Assembly (NCBI RefSeq): GCF_038502225.1
Contig: NC_091301.1
Span: forward strand, 19,192,347-19,256,346
Length of the DNA stretch: 64,000 bases
Reading direction: 5' to 3'
From: Cherax quadricarinatus
Taxonomy: Eukaryota > Arthropoda > Malacostraca > Decapoda > Parastacidae
The translations under genes and the position numbers were made by a program. Shown piece by piece: positions 256-60,424 of the stretch. Within the stretch, counting starts at the first letter, position 1. Each line of letters starts with the position of its first letter. Below the pieces are notes generated by a model that searched no databases, was not told where the DNA came from, and saw only the letters and a list, made by a program, of their open reading frames with translations.

Positions 256-3065
256 ATGGGCCCCAAGAAAGCTTCTAGTGCCAAGCCTGTGGTAAAAAGG
301 GTGAGAATTACAATGGAAATGAAGAAAGAGATCATTAACCCTTTGACTGTCACGGCCGTATATTTACGTCTTACGAGGTACCGTGTTTGACGTATATATA
401 CTCATAAATTCTAGCGGCTTCAAATCAAGCAGGAGAAAGCTGGTAGGCCCACATGTGAGAGAATGGGTCTGTGTGGTCAGTGTGCACCATAAAAAAAATC
501 CTGGAGCACACAGTGCATAATGAGAAAAAAAAAACTCTGACCGTTTTTTTTTTAATTAAAATGCCGACTTTGTGGTCTATTTTCGTATAGTATTTATGGT
601 TGTATTCTCGTTTTCTTGGTCTCATTTGATAGAATGGAAAACATATTATAGAAATAGAGGTGATTTTGATTGATTTTACTATAAAAAGAACCTAGAAATG
701 GAGCTCAAAGTAGGGGAAATGTTTGATTTTTGCCAATGTTCAAAAGTAAACAAATGATGCCATTGTCCAATAAATGTCCAACTAGCCATTCTAATATGCA
801 GTCATGAATGGATTGATGTTATTTATACAATTATTACAGTATTGCAGTAGTCTGCATAATAGTAAGTCTTCTATTTTTTGTTTGAATAAAAATTCAAAAT
901 AGAAAGCAAGAGTAATATCAGAGGGGCCTGGAGACATGACTGATGAGCAAAGAAAAATGTTATTTTAGAGCCAGGAATGTCTGCATTGTTCATTCTGGAC
1001 CTTATTTTGAAATTGTCATTTTTTTAGTTTTCGTGAAATTGGCCAAATTGCAAATTTCTGACCACATTATTAGGTTGAAATCGGTAAATGGGCAGTTTCT
1101 TGTACTCAATCGATAGAAAAAATGGAGTTCTAAAGAAATAGCTATGAGTTTGGGCGACTGGAACAATGGAATTAGCCGAAAATAGGGCTCAAAGTGCGCG
1201 AAATCGCCGATTTGTAAACAGCGCCGAGGTCGCTAACTTCGCGAGAACATAATTCCGTCAGTTTTCCATCAAATTTCGTTTTTTTGGTGTCATTACAATC
1301 GGGAAAAGATTCTCTATCATTTCATAAGAAAAAATAATTTTTTTTTTTTAAATTTTGCGACACCAGGAGACACCTCAGGATTGGGGGTTGCGACAGTCAA
1401 AGGGTTAAAAAATATGAAAGTGGAGTTCGTATGTCTGAGTTGGAAAGGCTATATAACAAACCCCATTCAACCATCACTACTATCTTGGCGAACAGAAAGG
1501 CAATCAAGGAAGCTGTTGTTGCGAAAGGTGCAAGTATGTTTTCAAAACGGAGATCGCCAATAATTGAAGAGGTGGAAAGACTGTTGTTGGTGTGGATAAA
1601 CGAAAAACAATTATTAGGAGATAGTGTGTCTCATTCAGTAATATGTGAAAAGGCAAAATATTGATGATATTGATGAATTTAAGGCCAGCAAAGGTTGGCT
1701 TGAGAGATTTAAGAATCGTAGTGGCATACACAGTGTGGTAAGGCATGGTGAGGCTGCCAGTTCGGACAAAAAAGTGGCTGAAAAATATATGCAGGACTTT
1801 AAGGAGTACATAGACACTGAAAACTTAAAACCTAAACAAGTGTTTAATTGTGATGAAACAGGCCTGTTTTGGAAGAAAATGCCAAATAGGACCTACATTA
1901 CTCAGGAGGAAAAGGCACTCCAAGGACATAAGCCTATGTTGTGTAGTAATGCTAGTGGTGATTGCAAAGTGAAGCCTTTATTGGGGTATCACTCTGAAAC
2001 TCCCAGAGTGTTCAAGAAAAACAGTATCGTCAAGGGTAATTTATGTGTGCTGTGGAGATCAAACACTAAGGCATGGGTCACTAGGGAAATTTTCATGGAC
2101 CGGTTTTATGGTGTGTTTCACCCCACTGTGAAAAATTATCTCCTGGAAAAGAAATTGTCACTCAAGTGCCTCCTGGTAATGGACAATGCTCCTGCTCATC
2201 CTTACGGCTTGTAAGAGCAAATTGCAGGGGAGTTTAGCTTCATTAAAGTGAAGTTTTTGCCTCCTAATACAACTCCTCTCCTCCCAGCCCATGGACCAGC
2301 AGGTCATTTCAAACATCAAAAAACTCTACACAAAAGTGTTTCAAAAGTGCTTTGAAGTGACCTCAGACACTGAATTGACCCTAAGAGAGTTTTGGAAAGA
2401 TCACTTCAATATCCTCAGTTGCATAAACCTTATAGGTAAGGCTTGGGAGGGAGTGACTTGCTGGACTTTAAACTCTGCTTGGAGGAAACTGTGGCCACAA
2501 TGTGTACAAGAGAGGGATTTTAAAGGGTTTGGGGCTAACCCTCAGGAGCCTGTGCCAGTTGTGGAAGCTATTGTGTCATTGGGGAAGTCCATGGGGTTGG
2601 AGGTTTGTGGCGAGGATGTGGAAGAGTTGGTGCAGAATGACGACGAAGAACTAACCACTGGAGAGCTGCAAGAGCTTGAGGTGCAACCTCAACAGATCAC
2701 AGCTCAGGAATGTGCTTCAGAGCAGGAGGAAGAGAGACAGAGGAAGTTGCCTTTGTCAAGGATTAAGGAAATGTGTACAATGTTCACAAAGGTGCAAGCA
2801 TTTATGGATAAATTTTATCCTGTCACAGCTGTTGCAAGCCATATTGGCAACATGTACAATGACAAGCCTGTGTCTCATTTTAGGGAAATCCTAAGGGCAC
2901 GTGAGAAACAGAGCTCTCTGGACAGATACGTATTTTGTGCGACAGGGGCCCAGTGACTCTCAAGCTGGTTCTAGTGGCATTAAAAAACCAAGAAGAGAGG
3001 TAACCCCACCAAAAGACTTGGTACCTGAAGTCTTTATGGAATGGGATTCCCCTTCCAAACAATAG
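256..3065 (+). pseudogene. Tigger (TIGD/jerky-like) transposase pseudogene
   Basis: The start is the ATG in CCACCATGG at 256, a good eukaryotic context. The N-terminus (PKKASSAKPVVKR, then KKYESGVRMSELERLYNKPH) is the CENP-B/pogo helix-turn-helix DNA-binding region. A CENP-B-type second domain follows (FKASKGWLERFKNRSGIHSV, near 1680-1735). The DDE nuclease shows CDETGLFW (about 1850), MDNAPAH (about 2180) and PMDQQV (about 2290), the three acidic positions of the Tigger family. The C-terminal tail ends DSPSKQ. Breaks: the MITE after codon 27, a frameshift near 1650 with apparent loss of some sequence, a TAA at 2212-2214, a one-base insertion in the C-run near 2288 just before PMDQ, and a frameshift near 2930. 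Removing the MITE with one TTAA restores the frame across that point, so the MITE is not the only disabling event. No function is expected now. Confidence 0.88.
339..1404 (+). mobile_element. piggyBac-type MITE, copy 1 (1066 bp)
   Basis: Flanked by TTAA at 335-338 and 1405-1408. The terminal inverted repeats are a perfect 13 bp (CCCTTTGACTGTC at 339-351 and its complement at 1392-1404). Two near-palindromes lie at 358-367 (GTATATTTAC) and 392-401 (GTATATATAC). There is no transposase frame. The interior is A/T-rich and matches the other ~1.07-kb copies (CTCATTTGATAGAATGGAA near 625). It sits inside the Tigger reading frame. TTAA duplication and CCC ends are the piggyBac signature. Confidence 0.93.
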
Positions 3066-3964
3066 AAAACCTGAATCTTCCCTGCTGCTGGTGCATCACT
3101 CATCAACAACTCCACAATAAAGGTAAGCGGCATTTAATTATTGTTTATTTTGCATGTACCATTCGTTTCTGTGTAGGGAAATGTATATTTCATGTAAAAA
3201 AAAATTATTTGTTTAATACTTTTGGGTGTCTGGAACAGATTAATTCTATTTCCATTATTTCTTATGGCGAAAATTTATTTGACTAACGGCTAATTCGACT
3301 AAAGGCTAGTTTTCTGGAATGGATTAAAGCCATTGGTCAAGGGTCCACTGTATATACATATATATATACAGTGTAACCTCCACTTATGAGTGCACCCACG
3401 TGAGAGTTCTTCCAGATATACAAGCAGTTGCTCGACTGATTTTTTGCTTCTAGATGCGAGCGAAATTTCCAGATGTGAGTGGGCCTCAAGGGAGGTTCCT
3501 TGATGCTGGTGAGGGGCTCCTGCTCTTGATCTAGGGAACTGGATCTCAGTTGTTTGTTGAACTATCTTATTGAAACTTGGGCAATGTATGATGGAAAGAT
3601 GCTACTTAACAGACACCAAAAATGAAAGAAATCGGACCATAAATAACGGAGTTCACTTCTCAGCCATTAGTTTCCCCTTAGCGGTATATTTTCGTATGTT
3701 TTTTATAGTTGTATTCTCATTTTTTTTTGGTCTCATTTGATAGACTGGAAGTCATACTACAGAGATAGATATGATTTTGATTGGTTTCACGATGAAAAGT
3801 ACTTTGAAATTGAGCTCAAAGTAGCAGAAATGTTCGATTCTTTGGCGATGTTCAAGAGTAAACAAATGATGTCACCTTCCAGTACCTGTCCGATTGGCAC
3901 TGCCCCTCAACCTTCACATATTGGAGAGCTCTTCAACTCGCTAGCAAAAGTGGGAGCAGACATC

Positions 3965-4165
3965 ATGAGGTAGCAGTGACAGACATGAAGTAGCAGTGGC
4001 AGACATCATGAGGTAGCAGTGACAGACAACATGAAGCAGCAGTGGCAGACATCATGAGGTAGCAGTGGCAGACAACATGAAGCAGCAGTGGTAGACAACA
4101 TGAAGCAGCAATGGCGGACATCATGAATCAGCAATGGCAGACAACTTAAAACAGCAGTGGCAAAC
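3965..4165. repeat. 23-bp minisatellite, about 8 degenerate copies
   Basis: Tandem units of the form GCAGCAGTGGCAGACAACAT followed by GAA repeat every 23 bp, with substitutions such as CAACATGAA/CATCATGAG. The unit length is not a multiple of three, so no coding role is implied. Confidence 0.85.
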
Positions 4166-4324
4166 CTTGTTGTACCCTATACTATAAGCGAGTTTCCGAA
4201 TGCTACCACGAGATGTCAGTATGTGTCAAAACTACGCTCAGTCCACTCCACTCGTGGTGGAGGGAATTCTCGTGTTTTCCTTACGTTTTGTGCAGTTATT
4301 TTGCAAAATTTCTTGTTTCTAACC

Positions 4325-5016: not shown

Positions 5017-5040
5017 GTACGTCTGTTCCGAAACTGCTTT

Positions 5041-5901: not shown

Positions 5902-7292
5902 GAATTAGACACACGTGCAACGCTTGGGTATCTTTAATGAGAAAACGTTTCGCCACACAGTGGCTTCATCAGTCCATACAAAGGAGAATGGTGAAGAACA
6001 GGAGGAGTTTGAGGTAATCAGTCCCTCAGCTTTGAGTCGATGTAGTCAGTCCATCAATCTTGAAAAGTTAATAAATTAGACACATGTGCAACACTTGGGT
6101 ATCTTTAATAACTTATGAAGCCACTGTGTGGCGAAATGTTTCTTCATTAACCCTTTCAGGGTTTCGGCCGTACTAGTACGGCTTACGTGCCAGGTTCCTT
6201 GATGTACTAGTGCTCATAAATTCTAGCGCCTTCAAATCTAATGAGAGAAAGCTGGTAGGCCTACATATGAAAGAATGGGTCTACATGGTCAGTGTGCGCA
6301 GTATAAAAAAAATCCTGCAGCACACAGTGCGTAACGAGAAAAAAAACTTTGACCGTATTTTTGGATTAAAACAGCGACTTTGCACTGTATTTTCATATGG
6401 TATTTATTGTTGTATTCTAGTTTTCCTGGTCTCACTTGATAGAATGGAAGACATATTACAGAAATTGAGATGATTTTGACTGGTTTTACAATGAAAAGTA
6501 CCTTGAAATTGAGCTCAAAGTAGCAGAAATGTTCGATTTTTACCAAAGCTCAAAAGTAAACAAATCATGCTAAGCATCCAATACACATCAACTGGTGACT
6601 AATATTCTTTCACAAGTGCGCCGATATTATTTATACCATTTCTACACTAATGCAGTAGTCTGCATAACAGTAAATCATCTATTTTTTGTGAGAATAAAAA
6701 TTCAAAATGGAAAGCAAAAGAATGTAAGAGGGGCGTGGGGATGTGACTAATGAACAGAGGAAATGTTATTTTAGTGCCAGGAATGTCTTTCTTGTTTATT
6801 CTGGACCCTATTTGGAAATTGGCATCTTTTGAAATTTGTGTGAAATTGGCAAAATTGCTAAATTCTGACCACTGTATTGGATAGTTGAAATCGGTAAATA
6901 GGTGGTTTCTTGTACTCATTCGATAGAAAAAAATGTAGTTCTAGCGAAATAGGTATGATTTTTGTTGACTAGTACACTGGAATTGGCTGAAAATAGGGCT
7001 CAAAGTGGGCAAAATCGCCAATGCGTAAACATCGTCGAGACCACTAAATTCGTGAGAGCATAATTCCTTAAGTTTTCCATCAAATTTCGTACTTTTGGTG
7101 TCATTATGATCGGGAAAAGATTCTCTATCTTTTCATAAGAAAAATAATTTTTTTTTTTTAGAAATTTGGGGGACCCTGAGAACAAGTCTCTGAGAGGACC
7201 TGTGGACCCTGAAAGGGTTAAAGATATCCAAGTGTTGCATGTGTGTCTAATTTATCAACTTGTCGGTTCTGTGAACTATTCATCTACATATC
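5902..7292 (+). mobile_element. Element with ~70-bp terminal inverted repeats, split by a MITE
   Basis: Starts ATTAGACACACGTGCAACGC and, after removal of the MITE at 6151-7217, ends near its inverted complement (GTTGCATGTGTGTCTAAT at about 7237), plus a short tail to 7292. The terminal repeats include TGAAGCCACTGTGTGGCGAA. A direct internal copy of the same terminal sequence lies at about 6076-6145. It sits inside a LINE 3'UTR between TGATGATGA and TGATGATAA, a likely target duplication. I do not recognise a coding frame. Penelope-like elements can carry direct or inverted terminal repeats, but this is only a suggestion. Confidence 0.55.
6151..7217 (+). mobile_element. piggyBac-type MITE, copy 2 (1067 bp)
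   Basis: TTAA at 6147-6150 and 7218-7221. The inverted repeats CCCTTTCAGGGT (6151) and ACCCTGAAAGGG (7206-7217) are perfect over 12 bp. Palindromes GTACTAGTAC lie at 6170-6179 and, with one change, at 6204-6213. No coding capacity. Confidence 0.93.
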
Positions 7293-10600: not shown

Positions 10601-11613
10601 CCCTTTCACTGTTCAGATTCTCAAAATTATTATTGCTCTCAGTGTCTACTTAAAAAAAAAATATGAATTGGTATAGAATCTTTTTCTGAAGCCAATGACA
10701 CCAAAAATACAAAATTTAATGGAAAAGTTACAGAAGTACACAGGTGCAGAGCTAGTGGTCAGGGTGCAATTTGCACATCGGTGATTCTGCAGACTTTGAA
10801 TCCTATTTTAAGTCAATTCCATTGCTCCTTTCGACCAAATCCTTAGCTACTTTGCTAGTATGCCTTCTGTTTTATCGATTGAGCACAAGAAACTGCCCAT
10901 TCAAATATCACAACTACCCAATAAAGTGCATAGAAATTTGTAACTCATCCAGTTTTACACAAAAATATGTACTTACTTAAAAATATAACACAAGCTAAAC
11001 AGTGCAGACATTACTGCCACTAAAACTTTTTTGCTATTCATCAATCAGGTTCCAGGCCTTTCCTTATATGTAGTATATTTGCCTCCCATTTTGAATTCAT
11101 AATCACACAAAAATAGGTCTACTCTATTCCTACATAATAAAATATTAGCAGAAATGAATCAAACCTATTAAAACCCCCATAAAACAGACCAGGGGGTGTA
11201 GGAGGGCCTTCCCATAATCAGGAAAATTGGCAAAAAATTAATATTTCCGCTATTTTCAGCCAAATTTCCAGCTACTTCCAGTCGTGAGACCAACCAAAAT
11301 CATCTGTTTCAGTAGTATGTCTTCCACTCTATCAAATGATGCCAAGAAACAGCCAATAAAAACCATCCTAAAAAACACCTCAAAGTCGCTATTTTAAACG
11401 GAACGTGTGGTTGGAGTTTTGCTTTTCCCATGATGCATCACATGGAGCAGGATTTTTTTTACACTGTGCACACTCACTGTGTAGGCTCATTCTCTCATAT
11501 CTAGGCCAAAATTTACCACTTACAGTTTATCTGAGTGAGCTAAGCTTATGACATTGAACTATGTGGGGGGCCTTTGCCTCAATAACAGTTCTACTTGATG
11601 GGCACTGAAAGGG
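10601..11613 (-). mobile_element. piggyBac-type MITE, copy 3, reversed
   Basis: TTAA at 10597-10600 and a decayed TTAG at 11614-11617. Inverted repeats CCCTTTCA(C/G)TG. The interior matches the other MITEs in reverse orientation (the A-rich run lies near the left end at about 10650). The subterminal palindromes seen in other copies are degenerate here (GTAGAACTGT on the minus strand at 11585-11594). Confidence 0.85.
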
Positions 11614-12591: not shown

Positions 12592-14769
12592 TATAAGTAT
12601 TGTATTAACTACAATAAATCATTACATTGACCAACAGTTACATTATTATCATTGTTTTTTACAATCTCAAGACAAAAAAAAGTTTGGTTGGCATTTTTGG
12701 AAGGTTTTAACCCTTTGACTGTGGCAAGCCCATTTCTGAAACTGTCATTTTGTCGAAAAATATTCGAAAAAAAAAATTCTTACCAAAGTGTTAGGATTAT
12801 TTTACTGAGTGTTTTACACCTAAAAAAAAATTTTGCCATCAGTGCTTACCGAGATATAGAGGCACAAAGTTGGCAGAAAATGAGCTGCATATGGTAACAG
12901 CGGTGAATGCCACTCACCCAGTATTCTTTTATTCACTCCAATTTGAAGGTTTCTTATATTTTCCAATATTTTTCTTTTCTAAGTAACTTATGTGGCCTGT
13001 GAGACCAAAGTAAGGTGCATTGTTCAGATACACACTCATTGTAAACAACACAATAACTGCACAAACATTATCATTATTATATTGTTTACAAAACTTGTTT
13101 ACACACACCAACAATACGAAACATTGTTTATTACTATTGTTCTATAATATATATACACACATGTGTACAGTCACTGAACACTTTCCTAGAACTGCTGCAG
13201 CTTGTGGAAGTCCTTGAAACATGGGTATATGCAGAGTAGTACTTCACACTCCTCACACATACAACAAGTGTCTCTGCGTTGTTGTGGGCGCTTTGTGGTA
13301 TTTGCACAGACAAAACACCTCTTCTGAGCACTTTTTTTGAAAGCAGTAGGAGGCACTTGTATGGGGTAGTGATCACCAGGCCTTAGACGAGATGGCATGT
13401 GTTGGTAATTTCATGGACGCTGGTCTATTGCAGGTGTTGCTCCTTGGTACTTGAATGTTATTTGTCTGATGACTGACAAACAAAATTCACCATATTTTGG
13501 TTTGTTGTTGGTCTTCAACTTGTATATGTTATAAGCATTCAGCATGGAAATATCAAGAAGATGGGAAAAAGGTTTTATGTACCACTTATAACTCTTGCAA
13601 ACACAATTGGCAAACCCAATCTGCATGTCACATTTGTCCACTAAGTGCATATTGAGGTTGTAGTCCATCACAGCTGCAGGTTTTAGAATGGATTCATTGG
13701 CGTCTCTATTCTGCCTGCCACTGTCTTCCATTTCGTTTCGGTGAACTGATGCCAACAATGTGACATCGTGTTTGTCATGCCACTGAAATGCCATGATGTC
13801 ATTGGCAGCAGAGGCCTGCACTTCACTTCTGTGAGTGCCTGTGTTGAACCTAGGCATATGCTTACGATTACCACGCACTGTGCCACACGTCTGTAATGTT
13901 CACTCGCAAGAAATCACTGAGTAGAGCGTTTTGAATGCTTTTTTGACAATCTTCATTTTGTAGCTAAAATTCATAGATTTTCACACTTTTAAATCAAAAT
14001 TACCACTGCAATTGAATTTTATACTAAAAGTAAGCAGTTATCACTATATAATATATGCCCCTTACCAAGATATGGTTCCATCATTGTTCTAACCACATCA
14101 CCAGAGATACCCAATAACTTCCTGGTATCTCTCAATGTATTACTGCCTGTGTACACAATTATTTCCAAAACCAGACCACTTTTGCAATCACACAGTACAT
14201 ATAACTTTATACCAAAGCATTTCCTGTTGCTTGGTATATACTGCTTGAATGACAGTCTGCCTTTGAACAAAATCAAAGACTCATCAATAACAAGCTTCCT
14301 GAAGGGATAAAAATACATACAGCACTTTTGTTTCAGGTACATAAACACATTCCTGATCTTATATAACCTGCCGTTTCTGTCAGGCCTTGTTTTGTCTGAG
14401 AAGTGTAGCATGCGTAACAGTATCAAAAAACGATTCACTGGTATAATATCACTAAAACCTGGGGTTGAAATCAGGCGTTCTGTCGACCAGTATGTGGTGA
14501 CAGTGTGCTTATACACATGGCATAAGCATTATTTTGGCAAAGAACAGGTACATCTCTGCCACAGTTGTATCCTTCCACTGGTGTAGCTGTGACCTTGGTG
14601 AAAGAATTGTATTTGCCATGGTGTACTTATAGTATGTGTTGCTTTCCCTGACAATAATTTCCATCAAGGGTTCATCAAAAAATAACTGAAAGCATTCCAG
14701 TTCCGTGGCATTGTTCCCAAGTGTACACAATGACCGTATTCCACTTTGTGTTTCATCAAAGTCATGGGG

Positions 14770-16852
14770 TGTGAGGGAAAAGTTCAGTAGATAGGAGTAG
14801 CGAGGGAGTATATAGTAACAATAGTTTCATTGCTGGCTACTTGTTAACCCTTTCAGGGTCCGTCCCGTAGATCTACGGCTTTACGTTCAGGGTCCAAACC
14901 GTAGATCTACGCCATGAGCTCAGCTCACTCTGATAAACTGTGAGTGGTACATTTGGGCCTAGATATGAGAGAATACATCTATGTGGTATGTGTGCACCAC
15001 ATAAAACAGATCCTGCAGCACACTGTGTATAATGAGAGAAAAAAAATGAAATCATGATTTTTCGATTAAAACAACAACTTTGCAGTGTTTTTTCGTATGT
15101 TTTTTATAGTTGTATTTGCGATTTCTTGGTCTCATTTGATAGAATGGAAGACATATTACAGAAATAGAGATGATTTTGATTGGTTTTAGCACTGGAAATG
15201 GCTTGAAACTGAGCTCAAAGTAGCAGAAATGTTAAATTTTTGCCGATATTCAAGAGTAAACAAACGACCTCACACGTCTAATACACGTCAGCTGGTGGGT
15301 CTAATATACATTCACAAATATGGTGATGATATTTATACAATTATTACAGTATTGCATAACAGTAAATCTTCTATTTTTTGGTGTGAATAAAAATTCATTA
15401 TGTGAATAAAAAATCAAAATGGAATTTATTTGTAAAGCCTCAAAACATAACTAATGAACAGAGGAAATGTTAGTTTAGTGCCAGGAATGCCTACATTGTT
15501 CATTCTGGACCCTATTTTGAAATTGGAATATTTTGAACTTTGTGTTAAATTGGCCAAATTAACAATTTCCGATCACTTTATTTTGTAGTTGAAACAGTTG
15601 ACTTGGCGATTTCTTGTGCTCAATCGATAGAATAGAAGTAATACTAGTGAAATAGCTAAGAATTTGGTTGATTGGAATAATGTAATTGGCCTAAAATGGG
15701 AGTCAAAGTCGGCAAAATCGCCGCTTCGTAAATATCGCTGACACATCAAAATTCGCGAGAGCATAATTTCGTCAATTTTCCACCAAATTTCGTACTTTTT
15801 GTTTTATTACCTTCACAAAAAGATTCTCTACGATTTCATAAGAAAAAATAACAATTTTTTTTTTTTTTGAAAATTCTTGGACGCTGGTGCGTGACTCCAG
15901 ATTTGGGCCTTGGACCCTGAAAGGGTTAAGGTAGGGTAAGTCCAGCTCCCGCTATTTCCCCCCTTTTTCCCCCTCCCCGAAAGTGATAGTTTGATTGCTG
16001 GCTGCTTGTTAAGGTAGGGTCAGTCTAGCTCCCGCTATCCCTTCCCCTCCCTCTTCCCCCTCCCCCCCGAAAGGTGACGTGTGGGGCTCCGGCCAAACAG
16101 TAATCACTTGACTCACAGCTCCCATCACTACTGTAAGTACATGCCTGCTCATATTCTAGTGGACTTATTGGTTGAAAGCTTCACTTTTGACCAATAATAA
16201 ACTTAGTCCTTTCAGTCTTGCTCTATGTTAAATGTCTTAATAATCACCACGTCTTTTAGGTATTGTACTTATGGAGAGTGATTTCTTAAGCAGTGTGTAA
16301 CCTGTCTCTCTTTCCAGCTTGGAATGACAGAATGGGTCACCTGCCAACCAACGAGTAGAATTGAAGGAGACTGACTAACGTCCTGAGACGTCCCATGTTT
16401 TATCTACTTGCCTGTGCACATGTATGAAGAATCAGGACGTAACCCCTCATCATTGCAGCGGTAAAGAACCTGATTTCCTGTCATCTGGATAGATTATTTA
16501 CGGCTATAGACTCTGTGAAGAACGAGCCGGTGGGTTGTCACAAACACCTGCGACCCCCCCCCCCACATCATCAGCAACGGCTACCATTTCAACAACACGC
16601 AGTGTCACCAACACCAGACACCCAAGTTTTATATATATTAGCGTTGAATTCAGATATTTATATTTTTCATTTTCTTTAATGTAGGATCAATATTTCATAT
16701 TTAAGTGTTTTATATTTTATATTTCCTAAATAATAAAGTGTTTATGTTTGTCAGTTTTTGTTCTTTTTCTGTGCATTAATTTTCCTGAGGAGGAGCCAGC
16801 CTTAGTAATACGTACTGACTGAAGTTGTTACAGGGCTGAGTAAGCCTTCACG
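14770..16852. mobile_element. Probable solo LTR (about 1 kb without the nested MITE)
   Basis: Comparison with piggyBac copy 2 places the inserted sequence between two TGGGG pentamers (14765-14769 and 16853-16857). It starts TGTGAGGG and ends TTCACG, roughly the TG...CA form with a doubtful last pair. It contains AATAAA near 16731 and a ~70-bp tandem duplication around 15926-16070. There is no coding frame, consistent with recombination between two LTRs. The retrotransposon family is unknown; it does not resemble the BEL/Pao LTRs here. Orientation is uncertain, though the AATAAA favours plus. Confidence 0.5.
14848..15925 (+). mobile_element. piggyBac-type MITE, copy 4 (1078 bp)
   Basis: TTAA at 14844-14847 and 15926-15929. 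Perfect 14-bp inverted repeats CCCTTTCAGGGTCC and GGACCCTGAAAGGG. Palindromes GTAGATCTAC at 14867-14876 and 14901-14910, each preceded by CAGGGTCC, so the terminus is effectively a 34-bp direct repeat. It is nested in the solo LTR. Confidence 0.94.
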
Positions 16853-17904
16853 TGGGGATTGGGAACAAAATTGGCAACTTGCTGCCAGTCCCAGATGCAG
16901 TCTGCTGGTGGGTTCTGGATATTGAAACGTGATTGTGGTTGTGCAGGTTGTGGATGTGGATGTTGTGGGAGTGTGGGGGGTAGTTGAGGGTGGTTTTGGC
17001 ATGGCCCACTGCTGGTGCCACATGACTTGTGCCACTGCCATCACCACCACCACCAGCACCTGCTGCCCCATGCACATTACACATCCCCATTGTAACAATA
17101 TCATCATCTTCACTCTCAAGTCATGGTGTAGGGCCACGGGATGTACTCCGAGGTATACTCTTTTGCCTTGGAAAGGCATATGGCACACTACCAGAATGCA
17201 TGCTGTGTCGTACATACTGCCGTTTCACTGGTGAATATTCCCTCTCACTGTCGCAACTTGAGCTGCTTTCAATAACTTGGAAATCACTCTCATTATCACT
17301 TTCACTGCTCAGATCTGAGTCCTGTAGACGGGGAAATAGTTTCCGTTTTCGTCCTGGTACAGGTGAATGTGAATGAGATGGCCCAGCACCAGAGGCAGAA
17401 GGTTGAGGGTCATCTGGGTTTTCATCACTAATTACGTTATCCTGGGCACTGCTTTCACTCATACTCTCTTGAAAACCATGGAATTCACTTTCACTGGCAC
17501 TTCCACCGCTGTTAGAACTATCACTTGGGAACAGAAGCCCTCCAATTCGGTGAGGAGTGAGGTACTTCTTACCACGAGGCATGGTGAACAAGGACTACCA
17601 AGATGGCATTCCCACAGTGCACCACTGGGTCCCCAATTTTTTTCACAGGGCGCACACCCACCATACAGGACCATTCTCTTACATACAGGCTTACCAGCTT
17701 TCTCCCACTTAATTTGAAACTACTTGAATTTACGCGTATTAATACGTCGGAAACATTGGCTCGTAAGACGTATATATACAACCGAAACGGTCAAAGGGTT
17801 AAGGAATGCAACCCTAATTCTTCCATACATTCTTTATTTCATTTACACAATTTCTTATTCCAAGCCATTTTCAGGAACGTAACTACCACGTTAACCAATC
17901 AACT

Positions 17905-33266: not shown

Positions 33267-34349
33267 CCCTTTCAGGATCCACAGGCCCTCTCAGAGACTT
33301 GTTCTCAGGATCCACCAAATTTGAAAAAAAAAAAAATTATTTTTTCTTGTGAAAAAAATAGAGAATCTTTTCCTGATCATAATGACACCAAAAGTATGAA
33401 ATTTGATGGAAAACTTAAGGAATTATGCTCTCACGAAGTTAGCGGTCTCGACGATGTTTACGCATTGGCGATTTTGCCCATGTTGAGCCCTATTTTCGGC
33501 CAATTCCAATGTACTAGTCGACAAAAATCATAACTATTTCACTAGAACTCCATTTTTTCTATCGAATGAGTACAAGAAACCACCAATTTACCAATTTCAA
33601 CTATCCAATACAGTGGTCAGAATTTAGCAATTTTGCCAATTTCACACAAATTTCAAAAGATGCCAATTTCCAAATAGGGTCCAGAATAAACAAGAAAGAC
33701 ATTACTGGCACTAAAATAACATTTCGTCTGTTCATTAGTCATGTCCCCACGCCCCTCTTACATTCTTTTGCTATCCATTTTGAATTTTTATTCTCACAAA
33801 AAATATAAGATTTACTGCTATGCAGACTACTGCATTAGTGTAGAAATGGTATAAATAATATTGGCACACTTGTGGAAGAATATTAGACTAGAATATTGGA
33901 CTCACCAGTTGACGTGTATTGGACGATTAGCATGATTTGTTTACTTTTGAACTTTGGTAAAAATCGAACATTTCTGCTACTTTGAGCTCAATTTCAAGGT
34001 ACTTTTCAGCGTAAAACCAATCAAAATCATCTCAATTTCTGTAATATGTCTTCCATTCTATACAATGAGACCAGGAAAACTAGAATACAACAATAAATAC
34101 CATACGAAAATACAGTGCAAAGTCACTGTTTTAATCCAAAAACACGGTCTAAGTTTTTTTTTTTCTCGTTACGCACTGTGTGCTGCAGGATTTTTTTATA
34201 CTGTGCACACTGACCACATAGACCCATTCTTTCATATGTAGGCCTACCAGCTTTCTCTCTGGATTTGAAGGCGCTAGAATTTATGAGTACTAGTACATCA
34301 AGGACCCTGGTGCGTAAGCCATACTAGTACGGCCGAAACCCTGAAAGGG
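33267..34349 (-). mobile_element. piggyBac-type MITE, copy 5, reversed (1083 bp)
   Basis: TTAA at 33263-33266 and 34350-34353. Inverted repeats CCCTTTCAGGAT and ACCCTGAAAGGG. Palindromes at 34321-34330 and 34287-34296 (GTACTAGTAC type) at the right end, so the element is reversed relative to copies 1, 2 and 4. Confidence 0.93.
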
Positions 34350-35885: not shown

Positions 35886-38827
35886 CCCTTTGAGGGTTTT
35901 CGTCGTACTAGTACGTCTTAGGCGTAGGGGTTTTTGACGTACTAGTACGCATAAATTCTAGCGGCCTCAAATCTCGCGCGAAAAGGCTGGTAGGCCTAGG
36001 TGTGAGAGAATGGGTCTGCGTGGTCGGTGTGCGCGGTAGAAAAAAAATCTGGGACCCAGTGGTGCATTGTGGGAATGCCCTCTTAGTAAACAATGTCCAC
36101 CATGCCTCGCGGTAAGAAGCTCCTCACTCCTCGGCGAATTGGGACACTTTTGTTCCCCAGTGACAGTTCTAATAGTGATGGAAGTGCCAGTGAAGATGAG
36201 TTTCGTGGTTTTAGTGAGGTTTTGACCGAAACTAATGACCATAATATCGGTAATAGTGAAGAAAACCCAGACGACCCTCAGCCTTCCACCTCTGGTGCTG
36301 GGCCCTCGTGTTCACGTTCAGTTGTTCCAGAACCCAAGAGGAAACTTCTATTTTCCCAAATCCCAGACTCAGATGAGAGCATGGGTGATGATAGTGATAG
36401 TGAATATGAACTACAAGCTCTTCAAACTAGTTCTAGTAGTGATAGTGAAGTGCAGTATTCCCCAGTGAAGCGTCAGTATATATGACGATATATGCGCTCT
36501 GGAAGTGTGCCATATGCTATTCCAAGGGGAAGGAGTGTATCTCGGAGTACATCCCGTGGCTGTGCAACAGGAACAGACAGTGAAAATTACGAAGATACTG
36601 TTGCAATTGGGATGGAAAATGTGCGTGGTGGTAGTGGTGCCGGCGGTGAGGCACCAGCAGTGGGCCATGCTGCCACCCACGCTGCCACCCACGCCGCTGC
36701 CTCAGCTGATCTAGAACAAAGCCCACCATCCCCCACTCCCCCACCACACCAGCCTCCACAACCACAACCTCCACAACCACAACCACCTGTCATTGTCCAG
36801 TACCCACCAGCAGACCGCACCTGGGATTGGCAGGAAGCTGTCAATTTTGTTCCAAATCCCCACCAGTTTGATGGCAGCCAAAGTGGAATATGGCCATCTT
36901 GTGCACTTGGGAACAATGCCACTGAACTGGAATGTTTCGAGTTATTCTTTGACGAACCACTGATGAAAAGTATTGTCATGGAAAGCAACACATACTACGA
37001 GTACACCATGGCAAACACATTACTTTCACCAAAATCACGTCTACACCAGTGGAAGGAGGCAACTGTGGCTGAGATGTATCTTTTCTTTGCCACAATAATG
37101 CTTATGCCACATGTGTATAAGCACAAAGTGAAATCATACTGGTCAACAGACCCCCTGATTGCAACACCAGGTTTCAGTGATATAATGCCAGTGAATCGAT
37201 TTGTGCTAATGTTACGTATGCTTCACTTCTCAGATAAAACCAGGCCTGACAGAACTGACAGGTTATATAAGATTAGGAATGTGTTTGTGTATCTGAAACA
37301 GAAATTCAGTACGCATTTTTATCCCTTCAGGAAGCTTGTAATTGACGAGTCTTTGATTCTGTTAAAAGGAAGACTCTCTTTCAAGCAGTACATACCAAGC
37401 AAGAGGAAACGCTTTGGTATAAAGTTGTTTGTGCTTTGTGATTGTTACAGTGGTCTGGTATTGGATATTATTGTGTACACTGGAAGTTATACATTGCAAA
37501 ATACCAGGAAGTTATTGGGCATCTCAGGTGATGTGGTTCGAACAATGATAGAACCATACCTTGGTAAAGGGCATATATTATATACAGATAACTGGTACAC
37601 AAGCCCCTCACTCAGTGATTTTTTGCGAGTGAACATGACAGATGTGTGTGGCACAGTGCATGCAAATCGAAAACATATGCCCAGGTTTGACGCTGGCACT
37701 CGTAGAGGTGAGGTGCAGGCGCTTGCTGCCAATGACATCATGGCATTTCGGTGGCATGACAAACGAGATGTCACACTGTTGTCATCAATTCACCCTAATG
37801 AAATGGCAAACAGTGGCAGGCAGCATAGAGAGAGAAATGAACCCATTCTAAAACCTGCAGCTGTGATTGATTACACCTTCAACATGCGTTCAGTGGACAA
37901 ATGTGACATGCAGATTGGGTTTGCTGATTGTGTTCGCAAGAGTTATAAGTGGTACATCAAACTGTTTTTCCATCTTTTGGACATTTCCATGCTCAATGCT
38001 TATAATATGTATACGATGAGCACCAGAAACAAACCACAGTACGGCGAATTCTGTTTGTCTGTCATCAGACAAATAGTATTCAAGTACCAAGGAACAGCAC
38101 CTGCAATTGACCGCCCACCAAATTATCAACAACTACCTGCTCGTCTGAAGCATGGTAATCACTTCCTGGTAAAACTGCCTGCTACTGCTTTGAAGAAAAA
38201 GGCTCAGAAGAGGTGTTACGTCTGTGCACATACAAGAAAACGCACACAACAACGCAGACACTCGTTTTATGTGTGAGGAGTGCAAAACTCCACTGTGCAT
38301 GACACCATGTTTCAAAGACTTCCACAGGCTGCAGAACTTCTAGAAACATTCCCTGTGACTGTATATGTGTATATAAAATATAGAAAAATAGTAATAAACA
38401 GCATTTCATATCGTTTGTTTGTGTAAATATTTTCTGTAAACAAAATAATGACAACAGTGTTTACGCCCTTATTGTGTAGTATTGAAAAAGAAATAACTTA
38501 CAAAATACTGATCATGTTGGCCTCAGAGGCCATAAAAGTTACTCAGAAAAAGAAAAATTGAAAAATAATTGAAAATAGTACATAAAAAAGTAAATAGAAA
38601 AATACCGGGTGACGGCAGTCGGCGATGTTACCATATGTTGTTCAATTTTGGCAAATTTCACACCTCCATATCTCGGTAAGTATTGACGTTAAAATTTTTT
38701 TGTTTAGCCTATAATGTTTAGAAAAAAATACTCTATTTTTTCATAAGAAAAAATAATTTTTTTTTTTTTTGAAATTTGGCCGACCCTGAGAACGAGTTTC
38801 GGAGAGGGCCTGTCGACCCTCAAAGGG
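35886..38827 (+). mobile_element. piggyBac element, copy 2, nearly whole
   Basis: Right TTAA at 38828-38831; the left duplicate has decayed to ATAA (35882-35885). Termini CCCTTTGAGGG and CCCTCAAAGGG are perfect inverted repeats over 11 bp. Palindromes GTACTAGTAC lie at 35905-35914 and 35939-35948. The first ~150 bases closely match MITE copy 7 at 59738, making this the best candidate source of that MITE type. Confidence 0.93.
36093..38343 (+). pseudogene. piggyBac transposase, two small breaks
   Basis: ATG at 36093 (MSTMPRGKKLLTPRRIGT). The N-terminal third is acidic and Ser-rich with a Pro/Gln-rich linker (PPHQPPQPQPPQPQPP). The nuclease core carries the DDD-type positions in KLVIDESLILLKG (about 37340), LYTDNWYTSP (about 37580) and SVDKCDMQIGF (about 37890). 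The C-terminal cysteine-rich zinc domain starts QKRCYVCAHTRKR. Breaks: TGA at 36483-36485, where copy 1 has CGA in the aligned codon, and a 2-bp deletion near 38257 relative to copy 1, which shifts the frame inside the zinc domain before the family stop at 38341-38343. About 750 codons. It would cut at TTAA and paste elements without a footprint. With these breaks it is probably inactive, though the core from 36492 is a long open frame. Confidence 0.92.
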
Positions 38828-39272: not shown

Positions 39273-40138
39273 CCTTTTCAGAGTCAGTGTCGTACTTGTA
39301 CGGCTTGAGAGCCAAGGTCAGTGCTGTACTTGTATGTGGAAATTCTAGTGCCTTCAAATCTAGCAAGAGAAAGCTGGTCGGCCTACATATGAAAGAATGG
39401 GTCTGCATGGTCAGTGTGTGCAGTATAAAAAAATTCCTGCTGCACACAGTGCATAACGAGAAAAAAAACTCCGACTGTGTTTTTGGTTTAAAACAGTGAC
39501 TTTGCAGTGTATTTTTGTATGGTATTTATGGTTGGATTTTTGTTTTCTTCGTCTCATTTGATAGACATTCCACAAGTCCAATACATGTCAACTGGTGAGT
39601 CTAATATTCTTTCACAAGTGCGCTGATATTATACCATTTTTACAATAATGCAGTAGTCTCCATAACAGTAAATTTTCTATTTTTTTGTGAGGATAAAAAT
39701 TCAAAATGGAAAGCTAGAGTGATATACGAGGGGTCTGGAGACATGACTAATAAACAGAGAAACTGTTATTTTAGTGCCAGGAATGTCTGTCTTGTTTATT
39801 CTGGACCCTATTGTGAAACTGGCATCGTTTGAAATTTGTGTGAAATTGGCCATATTGCCAATTTTTTACCACTTTAATGGGTAGTTGAAATCAGTAAATG
39901 GGTGGTTTCTTGTACTCAATTGATAAAACAAATGGAGTTCTAGCGAAATAGTTATGATTTTAGTCGACTGGAACACTGGAATGGGCCAAAAATAGGGCTC
40001 AAAGTGGGCAAAATCACCGATGCTATACATCATCGAGACCACTAACTTTGAGAGAGCATAATTCCGTAAGTTATCCATCAAATTTCATACTTTTGGTGTC
40101 ATTACAATCGGGAAAAGATTCTCTTATCATTTCATAAG

Positions 40139-40187
<49 letters not shown>

Positions 40188-40234
40188 CAACCTTGAGAAC
40201 GAGTTCCGGACCGGGGGTCTCAATGCTGAAAGGG
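39273..40234 (+). mobile_element. piggyBac-type MITE, copy 6, with a long T-run
   Basis: TTAA at 39269-39272 and 40235-40238. Ends CCTTTTCAGAG and GCTGAAAGGG have diverged. GTACTTGTAC at 39292-39301 and GTACTTGTAT at 39326-39335 occupy the palindrome positions. A run of 46 T at 40142-40187 replaces the shorter T-run of the other copies. Confidence 0.9.
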
Positions 40235-54804: not shown

Positions 54805-57800
54805 TTAAATTGCGTCTTCCTCCAGGAGATGATTCCAGCCCTCTCTAGATTGCGCTGCTGTTTTCCTAGTGGGTCTTACTACAATTTCTTCTTGCATTGC
54901 TCGGTCAGTGTCTTCAATATCACTCGTGTCACTTTCCCTTAGATTTCCATCTGCACTGGATTGAACACCATTTAATTCTAAGGGAATTAATTTATTAATG
55001 GTACGCAAACTTTCCTGACCACGACACAACACTTTGACGTTTCTGACAACACCTTGTGCATCTGGGTATAATGTAACTACCTTGCCCAGAGGCCACAATG
55101 TTCAATGTTTTTCAGTATCAATTAACACAATGTCACCTGGTTGAATGTTCTGTCGGTTTACTGCCTCTGGCACACCATAAGTGTTCACGTAGTGTAAGAA
55201 GATATTCTTTATGCCACACATCGGACCAATGAGTAATTACCTTATTTAACATCTTGAACTTATCACTCAACACGGTCACGTTATTGTAATCCTCATCACT
55301 TCCCTCGGGATTATCTCTATAGATAGGTGCAGCTTCTAACCTTCGTCCGCATATTAGGTGAGAGGGAGTCAGGATCTCTGCATCAGGAGTGTCGCTCATG
55401 TATGACAGAGGGCGATTGTTTACCCGATTCTCTGCCTCCACCAACACTGCACGGAATTCCTCCAAATTAATTCTCCTCCTGTGTGGCACCTTACGAAGAC
55501 ATCTTTTCACTGTACCTATCATTCTTTCGTACAGTCCTCCCTGCTAAGGGGCTCTGGGAGTAATAAATTTCCAGACACACCCTCGCTGGGTCAACAAAGA
55601 CTGTATATCATCACTCTTATTTAATTCCATCAAGTGTTGAGCACCCGCTACAAAATTGGTGGCATTATCTGAGATCATCAATCTTGGACAGGATCTCCTA
55701 GCTGCAAATTTCCGGAACAGTTGTATGAACTGTTCTGCAATCAAGTCCTGAGCCACTTCTAGATGAACAGCCCTAGTAGCTGTACAAGTAAATAGACATA
55801 CATACACCTTCAAGGGAACACCATCTGAAGTACCTGTTTAAATGATTGGCCCACTATAGTCCACTCCGGTCACATCAAATGGTTTTACCAATTGCTCGCA
55901 TTCCTTGGGCAATGGTGGAGGACCTGGGTACATGTAGGTTCTGGCAGTCTCCCGGCGACATATTACACACGACTTGATAACCCTTTTTACACTTTGCCGT
56001 CCTTGTGGAATCCAGAAGGTTTCTTGAATACAGTTTAAGGTATCCTGTACCCCACCGTGCATCACGTTATTATGGGCATTAAAGACAATCAAGGTTGTCA
56101 GGTGATGAGTTTTGGGCAGCAAGATAGGGTGCTTAGCATATTCCCCCAATTCAGCATTTTGTAACCTACCTCTGCACCTAATTACATCATCCTCTAAATA
56201 CAGCCCCAGCTTTTCTATTATTGAGCCTTTCACAATTTTTCCGTCCATCATTAATTTAATCTCATCCCTGTAGGTTTCTTCTTGTACCCTCTGTAGCCAG
56301 TATTTCAGGGGATGGGGAAAATTATATGAGACATTCATCTTACTTATAAATTTAAACACTAACCTTGTCACGCTAATCAGCTTGGGTAAGGAAGAATACC
56401 TATTCATGTCAGTGGCTAAGGAGGGACTACTGACTGGAGCGGTGCTCACCGTAATTTCGACAGGAGCAATATGTGCCTTTTGCACCGGCCAGTTAATTTT
56501 GTCCACCAGCCAACTTGGCCCTTTAAACCACGATAAAGCACTCGCAAATTTTTCATAAGTCAAGCCTCGAGACAAGAAGTCAGCCGGATTCTCGTCACCA
56601 GGAATGTGATTAAAGGTTAACATATGCTGACCCAAACTGTTATATTTCTCCTGCATTTGATTGATTTCAGCGACTCTGTTTTGTACATACACAATCTTAC
56701 TGTTACCATTACGAATCCATTGTAAGGATACCTCATTATCAGACCAAATTACGGTGTCTCTAATATTTATCTCTCGCAATTTATTTCTTATATAATTGGC
56801 TAATTTGACACCTACATAAATGGCCGTTAATTCCAACTGAGGTAAGGTACGTGATTTGATTGGAGCCACCTTAGCCTTAGACATAACAAGAGAAATGGCA
56901 CTATTACATTGAAGGTAAGCGACTGCTCCATATGCTAATTTCGAAGCATCGCAAAAAATGTGGAGTACATTTTCTCCATCTTGACTGGCCACATTACGTG
57001 GGAACTCCAACATTGGTAATTTTACATATTCACCTATTAGTTCTTCCCACCTTTCAACAAATTCCTCAGGTAGGGTTTCATCCCAAGCACACTTAAGCTT
57101 CCATGCTTCTTGTATCAACAATTTTCCTCTTATGGTAAGTGGGGACACTAAGCCTAGTGGATCGAAGCATTTTGAAACTTCCGCAAATAAGACTCTCTTG
57201 GTTAATTTATTGGGCATGCTGTAGTTATTAGACTTTAATGATAACAAGTCTCTCTCTGTGTCCCAAGTCAGTCCCAGCACATTACTATATTTAGACACTT
57301 CAACTCCAGGGTTGTCTTTATTTATTTGAGCCCTTAAACTGGACGAATTACTGTTCCATTCCCTCAGGGGCATATTTGCACCTTGCATTATTTCATTAGC
57401 CCCTTCATATATGCTCATTAGTTCCTCTTCAGTAGATGTCACCCCCAGGAAATTGTCCACATAAAATTGTTTACCCATTACTCCACTCAGTGGACCACCC
57501 GTACGCTTAAGGTGTGCATTTATCGTTGCCTGGAGTAGGAACGGACTGGAGGTAGCACCAAACAATACACTCCTGAAGCGAAAAGTCTTCAGGGGACTAA
57601 GTGGGTCACTAGGATTCTTGGACCATAAGAACCTAGTGCAATCCCGGTCAGCCTCCTGCAGACCCACTCTCAGGAAAGCTTTACTTATGTCTGCCATAAA
57701 GGCATAATTCTTAACCCTGAAGTTTAATAATATGTCTCCCAATTTTTCCGTCAACAACGGACCTGTCATCAAACAGTCATTCAAACTAGGTACATTTTTG

Positions 57801-59737
57801 TTACTCCTGGCACTACAATTAAACACAATCCTCAGAGGAGTGGTCTTAGAATCCTTCTTCACTCCGTGATGTGGCAAATAGTGACCATAAATCTGGGCTT
57901 GCTCGGGAGGTACCTCCTCTATGAATTTATTATTTAACTGCTCATTAATTATATCATCGTAAGCAGTCAACAGTTCTGGTGTCTTGCTCAGTTCGTGGAG
58001 CTGAGCCTTTAATTGTCCATACGCCATCCGGTAATTAGTTGGTAGGTCTGGATGATTCAGCTTCCACGGAAGTCTCACCCAGTATTGTCCAGATTCAAAT
58101 TTAACATCCTTCTGGTATTGTTCTTGAGTAAAGGAATCATCTGGACTTTCTTCATTTACATTGATCCCTATGCTGTTCAATTCCCATAATTTATACACAG
58201 GTTCAACTTCATCCTCTATTGAAGTATATATATACTGGGGTGACATTTCATGAGTAAGACACACCATAACTGTATTTATGGCTTCCTCCAGTCATTCATT
58301 ATCAGTACGAGGAAGCCTGCCATACATCATGTGACCTCCTGCGGTCCTTAGAAGGGTGACTCCGCATTTCTTTGTCATACCCTTTACAAAGGTGGCATAA
58401 TGGTCACTACCTATCAAAATATCTATTGGCCCCACAGAATCATTATTTACACCAGAAGGTGCCAAATTTACCTTACTTGAAATCCTTTCAGTAGCGTTAC
58501 CAAGCCCTATTGTAGATATTTTCTCTGGGAGCCTATCCACAATTATGGCATTAATACGTTTTCTCTCATTGCCCAGCCTGACAGTTACATAAACAGTGTC
58601 GTATGACTGGGCCTTCTTATTCGAGAGAAAGCCAGATAACTTGAGTATAGCAGGATCTCCCATTTGTACCTTCATCCCATTAAGGCAATTACGTTTTATG
58701 AAGGTACGTTGTGATTCCTGATCCAGTAATGCTGTTACAGTTTTGGATTTACGCCGTTTATCATTAATCACCACATCCAACACAGGTAAAGCTGCCTCAG
58801 CTAGGCCATCATTACCGACATTAGCTGCAATCTTTACGTTGGCTACTGTTGTGTCCGGGTTATTATCACTATCAGTACTATTGTTACCATCATTACGATT
58901 AGATCCGCCCTTACACATAGCTGTGTGGTGTCTTCCCTTGTTACACTGATAACAATGGTGCAAGTTAGAATGGCAATCCCTTACATTATGATTTCCTAGA
59001 CACCTGATACATCTAGCAAGCTCTTCCAATCTTTCCACTTTAACATCCCATGAATTATAGGCATTACAGTTCTTAGAGAAATGAGTACCGTTGCAGAAGA
59101 TACAATCTCTCCTTTCTTTGCCTGACCTCTTATCAACTGGGCTACCCTTATTGTGGTACTTCCTCCTCTTGCTTTGATGTGGAGAACCACTATTACTGGC
59201 CCCTGTCACTTGATATGTGCCTACATAACCTCGTTTAGTAGGTGACTTATGATTATTGATATTGAGATAAAGTTTCCTTTTGTGGAACTTGACAGGTGCA
59301 CTGGGGTCTGTAGACATGGTATTCCTAGAGGTAATGGGTTGGCTGGTCTGCAGTTGGACAATTAGCTCTTGCAGGCCCACTCTTATTTCTTCCAACCCGA
59401 AGTAGCCCTTGTGATATCTGTTAGATAGCCACTCTACTGTCTTGTGGTTCAATTTATTCTGAATCAAGGCACTCAACAACCACTCTGCTCCCTCCAGATC
59501 ATATTTATTACTCAAGGTCTTAAGAGTGCTTTCTAGTTTGATCCTAAATTGCTGTAAGCTGTTGCGGTTGTGATCTGGAGTCTTCAAACTAGCCAAATTA
59601 GCTACTAGATCCAGCCTACTTTGCTCCAAGTTACCATAAGTGGCCTCCAACAAGTCAACTGCCTCACTATAGGAGTCATCTACATTTGGGAATGCTTGTA
59701 TGAGAACATGCGCATCTCCCCTTACTTGTCCCTTTAA
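54805..59737 (-). pseudogene. BEL/Pao copy 2 gag-pol, second family, degenerate and split
   Basis: The frame is already open at the MITE boundary (59737; reading LKGQVRGDAHVLIQAFP), so the gag N-terminus is lost from view. Then gag (YDLEGAEWLLSALIQNKL), knuckles (CIFCNGTHFSKNC, CIRCLGNHNVRDC, CYQCNKGRHH near 58920-59110), protease (LLDQESQRTFIKR), reverse transcriptase (MADISKAFLRVGLQE, LFGATSSPFLL, FYVDNF near 57450), RNase H (FCDASKLAYGAVAY), integrase (GVDYSGP, MISDNATNF, YERMIGTVKRC) and a C-terminal WPLGKVVTLYPD domain. Breaks, all against a single parent frame: TGA at 58292, TAA at 55838, TAG at 55544, a frameshift near 55190, and a TGA near 55100. It differs throughout from copies 1 and 3, so it is a separate and older family. 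Confidence 0.88.
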
Positions 59738-60424
59738 CCCTTTGAGGGTTTTGGTCGTACTAGTACGTCTTACGCGTAGGGGTTTTTGATGTACTAGTAC
59801 GCATAAATTCTAGCGGCCTCAAATCTAGTGGGAGAAAGCTGGTAGGCCTTCATATGAAAGAATGGGTCTATGTGGTCAGTGTGCACAGTCTAAAAAAAAT
59901 CCTGCAGCACACAGTGCATAATGAGAAAAAAAAACTGACCATTTTTTTGGAATAAATCAGCGACTTTGCAGTGTATTTTCATATGGTATTTATTGTTGTA
60001 TTCTAGTTTTCTTGGTCTCATTTTATAGAATGGAAGACATATTACAGAAATTGAGATGATTTTGACTGGTTTTACAATGAAAGGTGCCTTGAAATTGAGC
60101 TCAAAGTAGCAGAAATGTTCGATTTTTACCAAACTTCAAAAGTAAACAAATCGTGCCAACGTGCAATACACGTCAACTGGTGAGTCTAATATTCTTTCAC
60201 AAGTGCACCAATAATATTTATACCATTTTTTACACTAATGCAGTAGTCTGCATAACAGTAAATCTTATATTTTTTGTGAGAATAAAAATTCAAAGTGGAA
60301 AGCAAAAGAATATAAGAGGGGCCTTGAGACGTGACTAATGACTAGAGGAAATGTCATTTTAGTGCCAGGAATGTCTTTCCTGTTTATTCTGGACCCTATT
60401 CGGAAATTGGCATCTTTTGAAATT
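59738..60424 (+). mobile_element. piggyBac-type MITE, copy 7, left part
   Basis: TTAA at 59734-59737, then CCCTTTGAGGGTTTTGGTCG. Palindromes GTACTAGTAC at 59757-59766 and 59791-59800. It breaks after GAAATTTG at 60424, where BEL/Pao copy 3 begins; the right part lies beyond the window. It is inserted in the gag region of BEL/Pao copy 2. Confidence 0.9.

What the first reader, a model, noticed from the sequence alone, without database searches (positions are those of the whole stretch)
339..60424. Paired 10-bp palindromes at fixed subterminal positions, with cores that usually change together
In eight of nine piggyBac-type elements a 10-mer of the form GTA-NNNN-TAC (a few sites with one outer base changed) lies exactly 20-29 and again 54-63 bases from the 5' terminus. 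Cores (first/second site): 339 TATT/TATA; 6151 CTAG/CTAG; 14848 GATC/GATC; 34349 (reversed) CTAG/CTAG; 35886 CTAG/CTAG; 39273 CTTG/CTTG; 59738 CTAG/CTAG; 17798 (reversed) TATA/TTAA. The spacing never varies although the DNA between the sites does. Constant position plus covarying core suggests a dimeric binding site whose specificity has shifted between subfamilies, possibly with the two transposase lineages present (copy 1 with TATA/TTAA, copy 2 with CTAG). A site read by host chromatin or by the transposase zinc domain is equally open. The copy at 10601-11613 is degenerate.
Basis: seen in the sequence. Interest (0 to 1): 0.78.

Follow-up and report, generated by a model that had tools for sequence, protein, structure and literature searches.

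The report
Jumping-gene docking code written four times
In a crayfish genome, related jumping genes carry two small mirror-symmetric DNA sites at fixed places near one end, and the one letter that differs between families is usually the same in all four half-sites, as expected if the gene's own enzyme reads it there.

Summary
The ninth element was read from its right end (RE); its LE is at 11613, minus strand.

In 57 distinct LE the rule is CGTA-X-WW-X'-TACG: arms nearly fixed, centre A/T (225 of 228 letters), and X (C, G or T) the same in all four half-sites in 51 of 57. Outside the window it is 45 of 50, against a shuffled mean of 1.8 and maximum of 8. Genome-wide, first sites ending AG are followed by second sites beginning CT 7291 times and beginning with a letter other than C 220 times. 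Independent evolution on the window's tree, at the observed diversity, never gave the match.

The architecture is that of bat piggyBat ends, where the palindromes bind C-terminal zinc-domain dimers (PMC11707139, PMC13405395, passages). I read these sites as the same, with three specificity classes. Binding is inferred; the responsible residue is unknown.

The parts
339..1404 (+). Non-autonomous element; LE at 339, RE at 1404; P1 358-367 (TATT), P2 392-401 (TATA); T class
6151..7217 (+). Non-autonomous element; P1 6170-6179 (CTAG), P2 6204-6213 (CTAG, one outer base changed); C class
10601..11613 (-). Old non-autonomous element in reverse; LE at 11613; decayed P1 11585-11594 (GAAC), P2 near 11551-11561 (GTTC, shifted by about one base)
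   Evidence: P2 by eye
12711..17798 (-). Transposase-bearing copy 1 (broken; interrupted by the 14848 element); P1 17770-17779 (TATA), P2 17736-17745 (TTAA); T class
14848..15925 (+). Non-autonomous element nested in copy 1; P1 14867-14876 (GATC), P2 14901-14910 (GATC); G class
33267..34349 (-). Non-autonomous element in reverse; P1 34321-34330 (CTAG, one outer base changed), P2 34287-34296 (CTAG); C class
35886..38827 (+). Transposase-bearing copy 2; P1 35905-35914 (CTAG), P2 35939-35948 (CTAG); C class; RE boxes near 38814-38821 and 38781-38788
36492..38276 (+). Copy 2 transposase ORF (DDE_Tnp_1_7); an in-frame stop lies upstream and the frame shifts inside the C-terminal zinc domain
39273..40234 (+). 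Non-autonomous element; P1 39292-39301 (CTTG), P2 39326-39335 (CTTG, one outer base changed); C class with non-palindromic centre
59738..60444 (+). Non-autonomous element without RE; P1 59757-59766 (CTAG), P2 59791-59800 (CTAG); C class

Best explanation
P1 and P2 are the two LE binding sites of the C-terminal zinc (CRD) domains of a piggyBat-type piggyBac transposase. Each palindrome takes a CRD dimer, one CRD per half-site (5'-CGTA-X-W towards the dyad). The outer CG is read by an R-x-D pair equivalent to piggyBat R543/E545, and the A/T centre lets the DNA bend. X is the base that sets the class (C, G or T). A tetramer places four CRDs of one protein on four half-sites, so a change in CRD preference selects the same change of X in all four. 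The upstream box is the equivalent of the piggyBat G motif and stands on both ends. Shown here: geometry, arms, X-WW-X' rule, matching beyond the tree, homology of transposase and CRD. Inferred: binding, tetramer, X as a read base, co-evolution as the cause.
For: Of 57 distinct LE (7 from the window), 51 have one X in all four half-sites (21 C, 15 G, 15 T); 45 of 50 outside the window, shuffled mean 1.8, maximum 8. Genome counts, lower bounds by the tool's own note: P1 ..AG with P2 CT.. 7291 (control 2) against P2 not C 220 (control 38) (P2 beginning CA, CC or CG not counted). Core columns 23-26 change identically in both sites in 17 of 17, 10 of 15, 12 of 16 and 11 of 18 element pairs; spacer columns 15-19, 29 and 31 in 5 of 20, 0 of 17, 0 of 7, 0 of 16, 0 of 7, 0 of 7 and 0 of 16; box columns 9, 10, 13 and 14 in 5 of 12, 0 of 18, 6 of 15 and 7 of 17 (pairs are not independent). 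Arms are 94% identical between elements, cores 43%, box 59%, rest 59%. Independent evolution on the tree: 0 of 291,106 runs with at least the observed diversity reach 29 of 32 matches, best 23. With P1 GTTC the P2 is GTTC 8, GTAC 4, GATC 3, GAAC 3, GATG 1, GTAT 1 of 20 (20 places that I chose from the 100 listed of 201; letters 57-58 were fixed by the search, 59-60 free): 11 of 20 are the same duplex word in either orientation. piggyBat: palindrome from bp 19, LE only, contacts at C19/G20, bends at bp 25 and 69; its printed LE has T at all four X places. P0003 aligns to piggyBat through the CRD, and R-x-D is present in P0002, P0003, P0005, P0012 and copy 1.
Against: No binding data. The three main classes coincide largely with subfamilies, so independent switches are few (at least two, perhaps four or more; inference). 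Both window transposases are broken, and the two lineages' CRDs are nearly alike around the contact loop, so no residue explains X. Box variants match within an end more than between ends, which protein selection alone does not predict. Inner flanks of P1 and P2 are often complementary, which I do not explain. The LE spacing is 34, not 44 as in piggyBat, and there are two P sites, not three. Without the diversity filter, slow rates give 29 or more matches in up to 7% of runs (rate 0.5), but then the cores hardly vary.
Confidence: 0.74

Rival explanations
1. Concerted evolution: the two units on one end copy each other by slippage or short conversion, so cores match without selection by a reader.
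For: In 4 of 6 elements scanned the two LE units are reported as 18-26 base direct repeats, 86-91% alike. Box variants match within an end (RE1-RE2 0.71 against 0.52; LE1-LE2 0.61 against 0.47) but weakly between ends apart from the tip-overlapping LE1-RE1 pair (0.62 against 0.49). 34349r has the same box change in both RE copies and not in the LE.
Against: Each site keeps its own flanks while the core switches. L067 and L058 share 44 of 45 flank bases (columns 27-56 and 61-75) although X differs in both sites; both are partly decayed. Dyad symmetry inside each site and GTTC/GAAC pairs (3 of 20) are not made by direct copying.
Confidence: 0.12
2. Base-paired hairpin: P1 and P2 pair with each other in RNA or single-stranded DNA, and their covariation is compensatory.
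For: The LE stretches fold at about -11 to -28 kcal/mol, largely by P1-P2 pairing. Inner flanks 30-32 and 51-53 are complementary in 43, 43 and 39 of 57. TAAA/TTTA and GAAC/GTTC are complementary pairs. piggyBat P1 and P2 with flanks are also better matched inverted (20 of 23 at 15-37) than direct (14 of 23).
Against: Non-palindromic direct pairs do not pair at the centre: GTTC/GTTC 8 of 20 against GAAC 3 of 20, and CTTG/CTTG at 39273. Pairing does not require each site to be its own palindrome, yet 47 P1 and 48 P2 of 57 are.
Confidence: 0.06
3. The palindromes are read by a host DNA-binding or chromatin protein, not by the transposase.
For: Nothing here excludes a host reader of a 12-base palindrome; no call tests it.
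Against: LE-only placement, register with the tip, two units with boxes, and the piggyBat CRD site at the same position. A host protein would not be expected to give three element-specific letter classes in one genome (inference).
Confidence: 0.04
4. Plain ancestry: a few subfamilies fixed matching cores by chance and amplified.
For: Three letter classes cover most copies and, by eye, follow box types.
Against: At the observed diversity the tree simulation never reaches the match. Several core types inside the classes (CTAG, CTTG; GATC, GTTC/GAAC, GTAC; TATA, TAAA/TTTA, TTAA) keep X, though CTTG, GTAC and TTAA were read on one to a few, partly decayed, copies. X differs between near-identical ends.
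Confidence: 0.04

Closest known systems
piggyBat (Myotis lucifugus piggyBac-family transposon), PMC11707139 and PMC13405395 (passages and one section each)
   Same: LE carries box plus palindrome units, RE has boxes only; palindrome starts at bp 19 with C19-G20; second RE box about 33 bp in (G1RE 12-15, G3RE 44-48); CRD alignable with the R-x-E/D contact pair; T at all four X places of its LE.
   Different: LE repeat 34 bp here against 44; two P sites against three; box GGGTCC-like against GCGGGA; CRD loop four residues longer in the alignment; three X classes in one genome.
piggyBac (Trichoplusia ni), PMC7351741 (passages)
   Same: TTAA target, DDE transposase, CRD dimer on a palindromic internal repeat at bp 17-33 of the LE.
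   Different: Identical 19-bp palindromes on both ends; [quoted passage not shown] the model aligned to 6x67 only up to residue 557, short of the CRD.
MITE families of piggyBac type (for example Pokey mPok in Daphnia; search listing only)
   Same: Short non-autonomous copies related to an autonomous element.
   Different: Not read; whether they carry such paired palindromes was not checked.

Membership tests
piggyBac superfamily | TTAA target duplication | tested here: met
   TTAA on both sides in 6 of 8 elements with two ends; 10601 and 35886 have one side changed by one base.
piggyBac superfamily | DDE_Tnp_1_7 transposase | tested here: met
   E 2.6e-80 for the copy 2 ORF; two of three copy 1 pieces also match, one has no match.
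piggyBat-type ends | palindrome on LE only, motif box on both ends | tested here: met
   strict palindrome at column 54 in 47 of 60 LE and at column 20 in 43 of 60; among 83 other tips at column 20 in 4, at 53 in 1 and at 69 in 1, the four at column 20 apparently LE with P2 shifted or lost; box repeat at 34 (LE) and 33 (RE).
piggyBat-type ends | LE unit spacing 44 bp, three units | tested here: not met
   spacing 34, two units.
piggyBat-type CRD | C-terminal zinc domain alignable to piggyBat with DNA-contact R/E | tested here: met
   contact residues are mapped by alignment with a numbering offset that I inferred, and E is D here.
piggyBat-type CRD | CRD dimer binds the palindrome | not testable with these tools
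   No binding assay; no protein-DNA modelling tool.
T. ni piggyBac-type ends | same palindromic repeat on both ends | tested here: not met
   the palindrome is absent from nearly all RE tips (see the row above).

The most novel reading that the evidence does not exclude
One base per half-site (X = C, G or T), repeated in all four half-sites, is an address that splits one genome's piggyBac-type elements (about 34,000 if the 69,144 tips come in pairs) into groups served by different transposases. The lineage has re-coded its CRD recognition several times by matched four-fold changes, giving a natural series from which the CRD's one-letter DNA code can be read.
Probability: 0.35. Interest if true: 0.72.

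Novelty: new variant of a known kind. Interest (0 to 1): 0.52.

Why it matters
piggyBac and piggyBat are gene-delivery tools, and, in the papers seen here, zinc-domain recognition of the palindrome is described from two structurally unrelated domains. A single crayfish genome with thousands of ends in three matched letter classes is a natural mutational scan of that site. It makes the question of which residues set CRD specificity directly testable and could give orthogonal transposon ends. It also shows that non-autonomous copies keep the palindromes and their four-fold match.

Tried and rejected
Viral contigs was scanned for both-site and first-site patterns and for the transposase: two pattern hits without a second site, no relatives. 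An RNA hairpin was tested by pairing counts and folding and kept only as a rival. A window-by-window body comparison failed in part (one search stopped with an error after three tables; it is not used). One search stopped with an error and was repeated. The 57-LE set leaves out three LE scoring 9 of 12 and five tips with P1 but a shifted or lost P2. The diagonal counts for G-class (..TC with G) and T-class (..TA with T) could not be obtained, so 116 (13 of the 100 listed places are a C44 tandem satellite) and 278 have no denominator. Of 60 such mismatched LE read (places that I chose from the lists), one (L108, TATA/CATG in a TA/CA run) has two full different classes (tally); by eye the others are mostly point changes, repeat slippage, insertions or other members of the same class. 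Prior art: searches, whose lists are capped, showed no title or abstract on matched palindrome classes in piggyBac ends; three papers were read in passages, two of them with one section each. Fold search 'viral' and Rfam were not run.
Full report
The window. It is a transposon-rich stretch of a 3.95 Gb genome (G000, contig C10:19192347-19256346). The copy 2 transposase (36492-38276) has its best match, 89% identity, in Cherax quadricarinatus, so the host is probably that crayfish or a close relative. The genome has 69,144 TTAACCCTTTSA tips against 564 for the reversed control, so of the order of 34,000 elements if each has two tips.

Observation. The window has 30 strict GTA-NNNN-TAC against 13.6 expected; 13 are LE sites and 17 lie elsewhere. 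The ninth element was read from the wrong end: 10601 is an RE and its LE is at 11613 on the minus strand, decayed. Elements run 339-1404, 6151-7217, 12711-17798 (reverse, with 14848-15925 nested in it), 33267-34349 (reverse), 35886-38827, 39273-40234 and 59738-60444 (RE missing). A body fragment lies at 3677-3891.

Anatomy. The palindrome is part of a unit: a box (GGGTCC-like, columns 9-14), then CGTA-NNNN-TACG at 19-30, and the same again 34 bases in. The box recurs on the RE at a spacing of 33 in 7 of 8 window elements; over 83 tips not scored as LE the mean box identity is 0.63 at 33 against 0.13-0.30 at 29-37 otherwise, and over 60 LE 0.65 at 34 against 0.17-0.41. Those 83 tips hold a strict palindrome at column 20 in 4, at 53 in 1 and at 69 in 1; the four look like LE with a shifted or lost P2. 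Across the eight window LE the palindrome arms are 94% identical between elements, the cores 43%, the box 59% and the remainder 59%. Inside the sites, columns 23 and 26 are complementary in 15 of 16 sites with three pair types, and 24 and 25 in 14 of 16 with two: the dyad is kept while the letters change.

Is the matching real? In the window, core columns change identically in both sites in most element pairs (17 of 17, 10 of 15, 12 of 16, 11 of 18), the spacer columns on either side almost never (5 of 90 over columns 15-19, 29 and 31), and box columns sometimes. On a tree built from other parts of the elements, independent evolution from identical sites gave 29 or more of 32 matches in 0 of 291,106 runs with at least the observed diversity (best 23). 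The tree is rough, because autonomous and non-autonomous copies share little alignable DNA, but eight rates from 0.5 to 10 were scanned. In the genome, loci fetched around listed tips on contig C1 together with the window gave 57 distinct LE with at least 10 of 12 arm bases. The letter next to the arm, X, is the same in all four half-sites in 51 of 57 (21 C, 15 G, 15 T). Outside the window it is 45 of 50 against a shuffled mean of 1.8 and maximum of 8. The two central letters of each site are A or T in 225 of 228. The core is therefore best described as X-WW-X'. Whole-genome counts agree as far as they go: P1 ..AG with P2 CT.. 7291 (control 2), P2 not C 220 (control 38); P1 ..TC with P2 not G 116 (control 7) and P1 ..TA with P2 not T 278 (control 16), the last two without a denominator because the search machine was busy. 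Of 60 mismatched LE read letter by letter one, L108 in a TA/CA run, has two complete different classes. These places were chosen by me from the listed ones.

Why it matches. Local copying would carry the flanks along; they are not carried. L067 (TTAG/TTAA) and L058 (GTAC/GTAT) share 44 of 45 flank bases in columns 27-56 and 61-75; both are partly decayed, and L067 was found by a search that fixed two core letters. A hairpin between P1 and P2 would require complementary non-palindromic cores. Among 20 LE with P1 GTTC, P2 is GTTC in 8, GAAC in 3, GTAC in 4, GATC in 3 and other in 2 (letters 57-58 were fixed as G and A/T by the search, so letters 59-60 are the test). In 11 of 20 the sites match as duplex DNA in one orientation or the other, and half-words GT and GA are used freely. 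That is what a symmetric protein dimer reading one letter per half-site would produce. TAAA/TTTA and GAAC/GTTC (mirror) and CTTG/CTTG (direct) fit the same rule. The inner flanks 30-32 and 51-53 are nevertheless complementary in 43, 43 and 39 of 57, which I cannot explain.

What stays open. No binding was measured. Both window transposases are broken: copy 1 by frame breaks, stops and the nested element, copy 2 by an upstream stop and a frame shift within the CRD. The two lineages' CRDs differ little near the contact loop, so the X-reading residue is unknown. The box behaves differently from the palindrome: it matches within an end (RE1-RE2 0.71 against 0.52 between elements; LE1-LE2 0.61 against 0.47) and, apart from the tip-overlapping LE1-RE1 pair (0.62 against 0.49), weakly between ends. 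A single core-domain reader does not predict this, and local copying may act there.

Verdict. The feature is real, is probably the CRD site pair of a piggyBat-type element, and carries a natural series of specificity classes. It is a new variant of a known kind.

Noticed in passing
window 36492-38276 and protein P0001: The copy 2 transposase and its 89% relative in Cherax quadricarinatus both stop at HSFYV inside the zinc domain, as if a CRD-truncating frame shift were shared by several copies.
   Followed up: partly
L103, L107, L114: In 3 of 20 mismatched LE read, P2 breaks off after GTA into CAGTGGAMC, which looks like another element inserted in the palindrome.
   Followed up: no
window 6255-6264 and 34238-34247: A third palindrome GTAGGCCTAC lies about 105 bases from the LE tip; it is not in the 34-base register.
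   Followed up: no
piggyBat LE85, positions 15-37 and 56-78: piggyBat P1 and P2 with their flanks match each other better inverted (20 of 23) than direct (14 of 23).
   Followed up: partly
window 33267-34349 and 6151-7217: Between these close copies (93% body identity) both RE boxes carry the same G to A difference (GGATCC) while the LE boxes do not.
   Followed up: no
window 3677-3891: Internal fragment of the non-autonomous body without either end.
   Followed up: partly
G000 C44:7424535-7425985: A tandem array with units near 42 bases gives 13 of the 100 listed matches of one search pattern.
   Followed up: no
window 20763-26048, 55838-59653, 61545-63932: Long retroelement-like ORFs (by eye); not examined.
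   Followed up: no
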